Origin: an uncultured Mucilaginibacter sp.
GTDB taxonomy: Bacteria; Bacteroidota; Bacteroidia; Sphingobacteriales; Sphingobacteriaceae
DNA: 35,142 nucleotides
Assembly: GCA_903915155.1 (NCBI GenBank)
Contig: CAIWRU010000015.1
Location: 1 to 35,142 of the forward strand
Direction: 5' to 3'
Shown in pieces: positions 5,917 through 8,093 of this stretch. The first letter of the stretch is position 1, and each line of letters opens with the position of its first letter. Both the position numbers and the translations under genes were made by a program. Below the pieces are notes generated by a model. It ran no database searches and was not told the origin of the DNA. It worked only from the letters and a program-made list of their open reading frames with translations.

Positions 5917-6240
5917 TTAAACAATTCGTTCAAATCTATAACTGGAGAGTTCGTCCTTAAAGGAAATAGCTTGTCTATTGATAGAGGTTATGGTAAATCG
6001 GTACTTACTATATCCTAATATAATATCTTCACCACTTTGTCTAAAAGATATTGCGATGGTGTCTTGTGTAAGGTTCTTATTTTCATTCATTATATGAAAT
6101 ATATAAGCCTCGCAAGTATCGTAATCGGTTGAATCAGTTGGTATAATATTTTCGGCAGTTGTAAATAATAACCTGCCATCAAATGAGTTTCGCCAATATC
6201 CCACAAGGTCTACCGACAAGTATAGTTTTTTCAATTCCAT
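5917..6240 (-). CDS. hypothetical protein
   Basis: 107 aa ORF with no overlapping alternative; AT-rich accessory context. Confidence 0.55.
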   Translation of the reverse strand: MELKKLYLSVDLVGYWRNSFDGRLLFTTAENIIPTDSTDYDTCEAYIFHIMNENKNLTQDTIAISFRQSGEDIILGYSKYRFTITSINRQAISFKDELSSYRFERIV

Positions 6241-6402
6241 AATACTGCACTATTATTTTCTCAAATATACTTATTTGTTTTTCTCATGAAAGCCTATTAT
6301 ATTTACTCTCATAAGTTGTAAACCAGTTATTGAACCTAACCTTTTGCCCGTTCCAATTACCACTAATACCCCTGTGCCAAGCAAAATAAAGTTCACCCAT
6401 AT

Positions 6403-6473
6403 GGCATAACTATGCCGTTGCTTTTGGTAAGGTTGTGGTAAACCTGAACGGTAGGCACGGTGTATGTTATGCC
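6403..6473 (+). repeat. hairpin element copy A: GGCATAAC...AGGTT-GTGGTA-AACCT...GTTATGCC
   Basis: 8-bp terminal arms 6403-6410/6466-6473, inner GCCGT/ACGGT, apical AGGTT/AACCT; shares AAGGyyGTGGTAArCC...GAACrGTArG with copy B. Confidence 0.65.
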
Positions 6474-6596
6474 TATTTTGTTTATCCCGTAACTCTCATT
6501 ACCTTTATCACGTTTAAAATATTGTACTGATACCGATTTGCTGTTCTAAATTACCACAAAAGACAGTCATGCGAAGCGGATATGGTGCGCCAATAA

Positions 6597-6665
6597 GGCG
6601 TAGCTATATCCCTGCATGACAAGGCCGTGGTAAGCCGAGAACAGTAAGGGTGTGTTAGCTACGCC
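6597..6665 (+). repeat. hairpin element copy B: GGCGTAGCT...GGC-CGTGGTAA-GCC...AGCTACGCC
   Basis: 9-bp perfect terminal arms 6597-6605/6657-6665, inner CCCT/AGGG, apical GGC/GCC; stem sequence differs from copy A but pairing is kept. Confidence 0.65.
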
Positions 6666-6697
6666 GTTTTTTATTAACCGTTCAAAATTACCACACA

Positions 6698-7078
6698 ATG
6701 AAAAAACTTATCACAATGATGGGCTTGCTATGCCTTGTAGCTGCCTGTAAGAAATCGGATGCATCGAAACAATCCTCATCGCATGTATTAACTGTTCAAG
6801 TAACTAAAATAAACAGCCCGTACATTAATTATCTATTTATAATAGATAATTACACACAAAAAATAAATTATCCGGAAATAACAGGAAAGAAAGATACCAC
6901 TTTCACTATTTCAGTAAATCCGGGCGATGAATTAACTGTAGAATACAATGTAGATTCAATTCCACCTAAAGGTGATGGGTTTATAGGCCATGCAAGTTTA
7001 CAGTTTATATATAATAGCAAAGGTGTAGGGTATGCTTCTGGTGGATCTGGTAATGTATCTATTAATCTGCCAAAATGA
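6698..7078 (+). CDS. hypothetical lipoprotein
   Basis: 126 aa; signal peptide with lipobox LVAAC; ATG follows the GTTCAAAATTACCACA motif; 4-nt overlap with next ORF. Confidence 0.75.
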   Translation: MKKLITMMGLLCLVAACKKSDASKQSSSHVLTVQVTKINSPYINYLFIIDNYTQKINYPEITGKKDTTFTISVNPGDELTVEYNVDSIPPKGDGFIGHASLQFIYNSKGVGYASGGSGNVSINLPK

Positions 7079-7602
7079 AAAAGAAACATTACATCATATT
7101 GGGTATTGTGGCAATATTCATTATTACTAACCCCTCCATAACAGCCTTTAAAAATTACTTAGGATCGTCAAGCTATTCGGGTCTTAAGCGTACCGAAAAT
7201 TTCTTTGTGTGCAGCTTGTATAGTCATGGGGGTAGAAAGTACTTTGGCATTGCGGGTAATTTTTGGGAGATACCACCACCAAGGCCAACAGAAGCGTATT
7301 TAAGAAGTCTAAAACAAGATAGCTTAAGAAAGTCGGATAGTTCCATGTATTCCTACTTAACCAATGACAGTTCATATCACGTAAAAGATACAGTGGGCAA
7401 GTACAAAGTACTCAGGTTATATTATAGTTTGCTTAACGAAGGATATACGGCAGCTAATTTGGGTAATTTTGAGCAGTTTGAATCAGCTGTAAAAGACACT
7501 ACTACCGCAACTAAAATTTACATGAATTTAAAAAAAGATGGGTATACAGTTAAAAATTTAGGTAGTTTAGATGAGTTTAAAAGGACTTTTTGTAAAATGT
7601 AA
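7075..7602 (+). CDS. hypothetical membrane-anchored protein with two C-terminal repeats (possibly DUF4359-like N-terminus)
   Basis: 175 aa; N-terminal TM followed by TNPS; repeats LYYSLLNEGYTAANLGNFEQFESAV and IYMNLKKDGYTVKNLGSLDEFKRTF. Confidence 0.75.
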   Translation: MKKKHYIILGIVAIFIITNPSITAFKNYLGSSSYSGLKRTENFFVCSLYSHGGRKYFGIAGNFWEIPPPRPTEAYLRSLKQDSLRKSDSSMYSYLTNDSSYHVKDTVGKYKVLRLYYSLLNEGYTAANLGNFEQFESAVKDTTTATKIYMNLKKDGYTVKNLGSLDEFKRTFCKM

Positions 7603-8093
7603 TGAATAAAACTCTTTATTTCGACATACTTAAGGTATTAAGCGAAAAAGGAATAGGCATAGAATTGGATATTATAAACGAACTTTCAGAGTTTAAGGAC
7701 GAGTTAAATTACACAAAACAGCAGAAGATAATCGACTTTATAGCTGTTATGGAAAAGAATAATCACATTATTTCATCAGGGTATTGGGCGGAACATTTAG
7801 ACGGTCGAGTGGTTAATGCTAAATTAACTCAATTAGGATTGGATTATTTTTATAGCAATGAATTGAGAAATGCAACTATAGCATCATTCAAAAATCAGAG
7901 ATTGTTTAATAGGGTATCATTGGTATTTTCAGCAGTTGCAGTTGTGATTAGTATATTTGCTTTTCTTAAAAAAGATAATTCAGAACCTCAAATATACCAA
8001 AAAGGGAAAGACACGCCACTATGGGAGTTAAAATACCAACAAACTTATCCCACTTATAAAATTCCAGATACCATTTACAAAAAACAAAAATAA
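7602..8093 (+). CDS. hypothetical protein, C-terminal transmembrane helix, possible winged-helix N-terminus
   Basis: 163 aa; ATG overlaps the preceding TAA (TAATG); hydrophobic VSLVFSAVAVVISIFAF. Confidence 0.7.
   Translation: MNKTLYFDILKVLSEKGIGIELDIINELSEFKDELNYTKQQKIIDFIAVMEKNNHIISSGYWAEHLDGRVVNAKLTQLGLDYFYSNELRNATIASFKNQRLFNRVSLVFSAVAVVISIFAFLKKDNSEPQIYQKGKDTPLWELKYQQTYPTYKIPDTIYKKQK

What the first reader, a model, noticed from the sequence alone, without database searches (positions are those of the whole stretch)
6403..6665. Two covarying hairpin elements with a conserved GTGGTAA apical motif upstream of an uncharacterised operon
Copy A (6403-6473) and copy B (6597-6665) share AAGGyyGTGGTAArCCkrGAACrGTArG...GGTGTrTGTTA but differ in stem bases. 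The terminal arms are GGCATAAC/GTTATGCC in A and GGCGTAGCT/AGCTACGCC in B. The inner stems are GCCGT/ACGGT and CCCT/AGGG. The apical stems are GGT/ACC and GGC/GCC. Pairing kept while sequence changes suggests selection on folded RNA or folded single-stranded DNA. I do not recognise a named RNA family.
Basis: partly seen in the sequence, partly recalled or inferred. Interest (0 to 1): 0.78.

Follow-up and report, generated by a model that had tools for sequence, protein, structure and literature searches.

The report
Self-pairing antisense RNA switch module
Two small RNA genes in a soil bacterium (Mucilaginibacter) each carry a short code that pairs both with the RNA's own first hairpin and with the start site of the neighbouring gene; dozens of relatives keep this three-way match while the code itself changes, which points to a previously undescribed family of RNA switches.

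Summary
The hairpins are real, but they are the second halves of two ~160-nt RNA units. Each unit has a Bacteroidota-type promoter, hairpin HP1 with loop R1, hairpin HP2 (the finding) with loop R' and a U-tract, and then a site R2 that ends 3 nt before a start codon (R2 of copy B ends at 6694, ATG at 6698). The 'conserved GTGGTAA' is not a family motif. It is a two-block guide (R') complementary to R1 and to R2.

Across 42 homologues, nearly all Sphingobacteriaceae, the guide core takes eight sequences. R1, R' and R2 change together: 6 of 7 pairs show two-sided changes in each duplex, 0/500 shuffles reach this. G·T outnumbers A·C 149:13, so the sense-strand RNA is what is selected. The ~190-nt unit precedes unrelated genes; a variant without R2 lies in prophages. 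Rfam has no match.

Best explanation: a c4-like, same-strand antisense riboregulator that is also an attenuator. The guide either pairs with its own R1 (long hairpin, no terminator, start site free) or is exposed and blocks the start site. Copy A is predicted to expose its guide and copy B to hide it. Regulation, termination and the signal are inferred; none was measured. New variant of a known kind.

The parts
6274..6305 (+). predicted promoter of copy A: TTTG (6274-6277), 20 nt, TAtaTTTA (6298-6305)
   Evidence: direct reading; the -7 box TAnnTTnG is enriched at -26..-22 before HP1 in 45 homologues; consensus TTTG / TAnnTTTG from PMC7366714
6331..6395 (+). HP1 of copy A (TGAAC..TTTTGC / GCAAAA..GTTCA), loop holds R1
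   Evidence: fold; direct reading
6348..6363 (+). R1 of copy A: CCGTTC-CAA-TTACCAC, complementary to its own guide
6403..6473 (+). HP2 of copy A (hairpin of the finding), followed by a T-rich tract
6435..6451 (+). guide R' of copy A: GTGGTAA (6435-6441) and GAACGG (6446-6451)
   Evidence: pairs with the start-site repeat at 6678-6694 at -23.8 kcal/mol and with R1 of B at -27.8
6477..6507 (+). predicted promoter of copy B: TTTG (6477-6480), 19 nt, TAccTTTA (6500-6507)
   Evidence: direct reading; PMC7366714
6524..6589 (+). HP1 of copy B (segments a: GTACTGATACCGATTTGC and b: GCGAAGCGGATATGGTGC)
   Evidence: fold; a:b covariation
6541..6557 (+). R1 of copy B: CTGTTC-TAAA-TTACCAC
6597..6672 (+). 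HP2 of copy B (segments c and d) plus T-tract GTTTTTT: terminator-like
6627..6644 (+). guide R' of copy B: GTGGTAA (6627-6633) and GAACAG (6639-6644)
6678..6694 (+). R2 (third repeat): CCGTTC-AAAA-TTACCAC, ends 3 nt before the ATG at 6698: predicted guide target over the ribosome-binding region
   Evidence: R':R2 covariation; spacing to ATG in 42 homologues
6698..7078 (+). first cargo gene: 126-aa predicted lipoprotein; homologues are also first cargo genes at L162 and L152
   Evidence: no Pfam match
7075..7602 (+). second cargo gene: 175-aa predicted membrane protein (ITNPS..NF family), recurs in other cargo operons
7602..8093 (+). third cargo gene: predicted winged-helix domain plus transmembrane helix, recurs as last cargo gene

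Best explanation
Each unit is a ~160-nt RNA made from its own promoter in the same direction as the gene behind it. It is an antisense riboregulator of that gene and also a transcription attenuator. Its guide R' (two blocks in the apical part of HP2) can pair with R1, its own upstream copy of the target, or with R2, which covers the ribosome-binding region just before the start codon. Fold 1 (HP1 a:b plus HP2 c:d with U-tract) terminates transcription and exposes R'. Fold 2 is one long hairpin (b:c, R1:R', a:d); it removes the terminator and hides R', so the operon is read and translated. Terminated RNA with an exposed guide should act in trans, on R2 (blocking translation) and on R1 of nascent leaders (driving them to fold 1), giving dosage-dependent negative autoregulation as in phage c4 RNA and plasmid antisense-attenuation systems. 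In the window, copy A is predicted to be the dedicated antisense RNA and copy B the switchable leader of the lipoprotein operon. SHOWN: anatomy, homologues, three-way covariation, strand asymmetry, promoter box, U-tract, spacing to ATG. INFERRED: transcription, termination, translational block, action in trans, the signal, and the cargo's role.
For: R':R2 and R1:R' each have 6 of 7 pairs with two-sided changes; 97-98% of cells are paired, 0/500 shuffles reach the scores, and slid controls pair 24-51%. Cognate duplexes beat non-cognate ones for R1 (-36.1 vs -23.3 kcal/mol) and R2 (-16.5 vs -10.4), permutations 0/10000 each. With one representative for each of the eight guide types, p = 2e-5 for R2 and 1e-5 for R1. 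R2 core ends 0-6 nt before an ATG in 38 of 42. In the own genome this arrangement occurs only at the two cognate genes. L133 has a second R2 before a second, paralogous cargo gene. Promoter box at fixed position: 16 hits vs shuffled maximum 6. 6-8 T in the 10 nt after HP2; G·T 149 vs A·C 13. Long hairpin is the MFE in 38/42, mean 7.7 kcal/mol below two hairpins. Prefix folding passes from HP1 to b:c to R1:R' before d is made. A folds as two hairpins and its guide fits the start site better than B's does (-23.8 vs -14.4); the same upstream/downstream difference holds in 5 of 5 tandem pairs.
Against: No RNA or expression data. Prophage and Pedobacter copies keep R1:R' but have no R2, so translational control cannot be the whole family's function. 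No second target was found in phage DNA. In three of five tandem pairs the upstream guide does not match the downstream sites. Minimum-energy folding predicts antitermination by default in most members, so the repressing state needs a trans partner or kinetics that were not modelled. Covariation controls do not correct for phylogeny.
Confidence: 0.6

Rival explanations
1. A pure cis attenuator or riboswitch: the a:b / b:c / c:d switch responds to a ligand, protein or the ribosome. R2 pairing is a second, translational layer of the same molecule (apical loop to the segment behind it) and nothing acts in trans.
For: Mutually exclusive folds with a terminator. Prophage and Pedobacter copies keep R1:R' without R2. 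Unrelated genes share one leader.
Against: No conserved unpaired aptamer-like core: the conserved bases lie in the stems and the loops are the fast-changing guide. A cis-only device gives little reason for eight matched guide codes. Copies A and L128-upstream have no gene of their own and are predicted to expose a guide that fits the neighbour's sites.
Confidence: 0.22
2. Antitoxin RNA of a toxin-antitoxin system (type I or III): the RNA keeps a harmful downstream protein silent.
For: RNA gene, terminator, then a small gene in this order; many cargo proteins are small, secreted or membrane proteins.
Against: Type III: no short tandem RNA repeats and no ToxN/CptN/TenpN-type toxin family in the Pfam or PADLOC scans of 73 cargo proteins. 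Type I: the first cargo proteins are mostly 90-290 aa, mutually unrelated, some UDG- or RadC-like; the RNA is not encoded opposite its target.
Confidence: 0.1
3. DNA recombination site or guide RNA of a mobile element: R1, R2 and R3 are recombination sites and the hairpin or its RNA is the guide (attC-like or bridge-RNA-like), with cargo inserted at R2.
For: R copies are direct repeats flanking ~140-190 bp units that occur in tandem (window, L128). A ~190-nt unit precedes unrelated cargo. The window's 2.4-kb insert is absent at the same place in L030. One chimeric element (L148) exists.
Against: R does not recur behind the cargo. No integron integrase above cut-off. No IS110 transposase in the own genome or in 8 of 14 carriers. 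The outer stem does not fit the attC R box (alignment). Promoter, U-tract, sense-strand G·T bias and ATG spacing have no role in this model.
Confidence: 0.07
4. Passive repeat (REPIN- or MITE-like inverted hairpin pair) without regulatory role.
For: The element is an inverted pair of imperfect palindromes.
Against: 1 to 7 divergent copies per genome, not many alike; three-way covariation with a site before the start codon.
Confidence: 0.01

Closest known systems
c4 antisense RNA of phages P1 and P7 (Rfam RF01695; Citron and Schuster 1990, described in PMC12197685)
   Same: Small structured RNA with complementary sequences in loops that pairs with target mRNA around the ribosome-binding site; by own knowledge it is encoded upstream of its target on the same strand, uses two short complementary blocks, and differing sequences set immunity groups.
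   Different: No Rfam match. Here the RNA carries its own copy of the target (R1) in a first hairpin, has a terminator-like second hairpin, is found in Sphingobacteriaceae, and is followed by unrelated cargo genes.
Antisense-RNA transcription attenuation in plasmid copy control (pT181, pIP501 type; own knowledge)
   Same: Leader with mutually exclusive 1:2, 2:3, 3:4 pairings, loops that pair in trans, loop sequences that set specificity groups.
   Different: There the antisense RNA comes from the opposite strand; here it is the same-strand transcript, made self-complementary by an inverted copy. Cargo is not a replication gene.
Type III toxin-antitoxin RNA leaders (ToxIN, own knowledge)
   Same: RNA gene, terminator and small gene in that order.
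   Different: No short tandem RNA repeats, no ToxN-like protein.
Pedo-repair RNA motif (RF01715, Pedobacter; listed in PMC2864571)
   Same: Structured RNA from the same bacterial family.
   Different: No cmscan match at E up to 5, including in the RadC-linked copies.
Integron attC sites
   Same: Imperfect hairpin, start codon soon after the site, variable small cargo.
   Different: R-box consensus not met; no IntI; function is on the sense RNA strand.

Membership tests
c4 antisense RNA (RF01695) | match to the Rfam covariance model | tested here: not met
   no hit at gathering or at E up to 5
c4 antisense RNA (RF01695) | two short loop blocks complementary to the ribosome-binding region of the downstream, same-strand gene | tested here: met
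c4 antisense RNA (RF01695) | represses an antirepressor gene in a phage; RNA processed from the common transcript | not testable with these tools
   cargo here is not an antirepressor; processing needs RNA data
Transcription attenuator | mutually exclusive antiterminator and terminator hairpins, terminator with U-tract | tested here: met
   (predicted, not measured)
Riboswitch | conserved ligand-binding core | tested here: inconclusive
   alignment A7 shows conserved stem bases and variable loops; no ligand test possible
Integron attC | R box GTTRRRY / RYYYAAC in the outer stem | tested here: not met
   fifth position of the box is a conserved C (column 185, G-C in 41 of 42)
Integron attC | integron integrase in the genome | tested here: not met
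   0 of 14 carrier genomes above the TIGR02249 cut-off
IS110 bridge RNA | IS110 transposase beside the RNA | tested here: not met
   none in own genome, 8 of 14 carriers lack it
Type III toxin-antitoxin | ToxN/CptN/TenpN-type toxin after an RNA of short tandem repeats | tested here: not met
   no such repeats in alignment A7
REPIN / RAYT | many near-identical copies per genome | tested here: not met
   3 copies in own genome, 1-7 elsewhere

The most novel reading that the evidence does not exclude
A self-specific RNA immunity code shared by prophages and chromosomal cargo islands of Sphingobacteriaceae. Each RNA carries both target and anti-target, so resident copies silence incoming or sibling copies that bear the same code, and codes diversify into incompatibility or immunity groups, as in P1/P7 heteroimmunity but with a built-in decoy and attenuator.
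Probability: 0.25. Interest if true: 0.86.

Novelty: new variant of a known kind. Interest (0 to 1): 0.72.

Why it matters
It is an RNA family absent from Rfam in which one short code is written three times (decoy, guide, target) and has been rewritten at least eight times with all three copies kept in step. That is a natural set of specific riboregulators in Bacteroidota, where few regulatory mechanisms are known, and it gives a sequence handle on fast-turning cargo genes. Presence in Mu-like phages and prophages raises the question of RNA-based immunity, which the covarying codes make directly testable with reporter swaps.

Tried and rejected
Rfam at gathering and relaxed thresholds: nothing. 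Integron and IS110 readings: failed their defining tests. R sites behind the cargo, expected for cassette insertion: not found. Further genome targets of the guide before other start codons in the own genome: only the two cognate genes. Targets of the prophage RNAs inside their phages: nothing clear above background, although no formal background was computed. Annotated plasmid and phage records: no blastn match. Cargo families: no common Pfam, PADLOC, NCBIfam or PHROG family. Model hits L174, L181, L185, L186 and L019-L021 were rejected by eye as chance or coding repeats. Literature searches found no description. Whether loci in one genome avoid sharing a code: 1 of 15 pairs share a core by hand count, too few to conclude.

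Full report
OBSERVATION. Hairpins A (6403-6473) and B (6597-6665) exist and fold better than shuffles. The apical segment of each hairpin, GTGGTAA-n4-GAACGG in A and GTGGTAA-n5-GAACAG in B, is complementary to these repeats. A third locus in the same genome (contig 185) has the same plan with another second block, GGTGAC against GTCACC.

HOMOLOGUES. A covariance model from the three copies found 11 of 60 relatives with matches. A rebuilt model from 13 sequences hit 50 of 401 Sphingobacteriaceae genomes at E<=0.01; a few of these are false (L174, L181, L185 and L186 rejected by eye). Only 7 of 395 genomes matched when drawn from the class and 3 of 296 when drawn from the phylum. The distribution is narrow and patchy. 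The hflX neighbourhood places the window in Mucilaginibacter. In one relative (L030) hflX and the next gene are 106 bp apart instead of 2.4 kb, so the RNA plus cargo is an insertion or the relative has lost it.

ANATOMY. In order: promoter box, segment a, R1, segment b (a:b = HP1), segment c, guide R', segment d (c:d = HP2), T-tract, R2, ATG. A TAnnTTnG box clusters 22-26 nt before the first stem (16 of 45 sequences in the best position bin; shuffled maximum 6), as expected for Bacteroidota promoters (PMC7366714). The RNA is about 163 nt long. Pairwise blastn shows that the conserved unit runs from just before HP1 to the start codon, 75-90% identical in front of unrelated genes.

COVARIATION. 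On a MAFFT alignment of 42 elements (A7), R':R2 pairs in 98.3% of cells with two-sided changes at 6 of 7 positions (for example G-C 23, C-G 18, U-A 1). R1:R' pairs in 96.9% with 6 of 7. The second guide block has 5 of 5 in R1. HP2 has 5 of 9 and HP1 2 of 4. None of 500 shuffles reaches the scores, and sliding the partners drops pairing to 24-51%. Eight guide-core types remain matched in all three places, p about 1e-5 with one sequence per type. Relatedness is not modelled, so these are not formal phylogenetic tests. Window copy A has no R2 of its own; it counts as unpaired or chance in these tables. G·T outnumbers A·C 149 to 13, so the strand read toward the cargo is the one that folds.

MECHANISM. 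Two folds exclude each other. In 38 of 42 the minimum-energy fold is one long hairpin (R1:R', b:c, a:d), on average 7.7 kcal/mol below the two-hairpin fold; in window B -64.7 against about -43.6. Folding growing prefixes gives HP1 first, then b:c, then R1:R' before d exists; this is thermodynamics of prefixes, not kinetics. The long hairpin lacks the terminator and hides the guide. The two-hairpin form has the terminator and exposes it. In the window copy A is predicted in the two-hairpin form with a guide that fits the start site of 6698 at -23.8 kcal/mol (copy B's own guide: -14.4) and B's R1 at -27.8; copy B is predicted in the long form. In all five tandem loci the upstream copy lacks the long hairpin and the gene-proximal copy has it, although only in the window and in L128 does the upstream guide match. 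This suggests an antisense RNA upstream and a switchable leader downstream. The direction of regulation, action in trans and the trigger are inference.

CARGO AND PHAGES. First cargo genes are unrelated: lipoproteins, membrane proteins, UDG-like, TPR and others. Some families recur, among them those of the window: the lipoprotein in L162 and L152, the ITNPS membrane protein in five other cargo operons, and a winged-helix plus membrane protein (AlphaFold mean pLDDT 73, weak PadR-like Foldseek matches with E about 0.01). A second class keeps HP1, HP2 and R1:R' but lacks R2. It lies in Mu-like phages and prophages (L209, which is the same as L145; L214; L212; L167), next to RadC-like genes with phage structural or lysis genes nearby (L164, L169), next to an integrase (L142), and in Pedobacter before a conserved Cys-rich gene. 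Its function is open.

COMPARISON. It works most like the c4 antisense RNA of P1/P7, combined with plasmid-type attenuation, but it is not a member of RF01695 by the model test. It fails the defining tests of attC, bridge RNA, type III antitoxin and REPIN.

Noticed in passing
L148:4638-4835: Chimeric element: R1 reads TTCTCAC while guide and R2 read GTGGTGT / ACACCAC, as if two elements had recombined between HP1 and HP2.
   Followed up: partly
L133 (G347:C1:4037200-4051300): A second R2-like site (ATCACCAAATTACCAC, a few nt before an ATG) stands before a second, paralogous cargo gene of the same operon, about 0.7 kb on.
   Followed up: partly
L209, L214, L212 (IMG/VR) and L145: Mu-like phages carry the RNA between their early genes and a 67-71-aa ORF (MVxFEEKERKIIIT); no phage target of its guide was found.
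   Followed up: partly
L134:5959-6238 and L136:5973-6248: In one genome (G347) two loci share an 87%-identical upstream element with a guide that matches neither its own R1 nor the downstream sites: possibly a third subtype.
   Followed up: no
L171-L173, L175-L177 and related Pedobacter loci: Divergent copy with no R2, upstream of a conserved Cys-rich MAQExFYY gene and a lipoprotein; looks vertically inherited.
   Followed up: partly
window 5917-6240 (-): 107-aa orphan ORF between hflX and the RNA, inside the same 2.4-kb insertion, no homologue in the loci fetched.
   Followed up: no
L164:7564-8001 and L169:6107-6541: RadC-like ORFs (PF04002) directly after prophage-borne copies, probably with a TTG start.
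   Followed up: no
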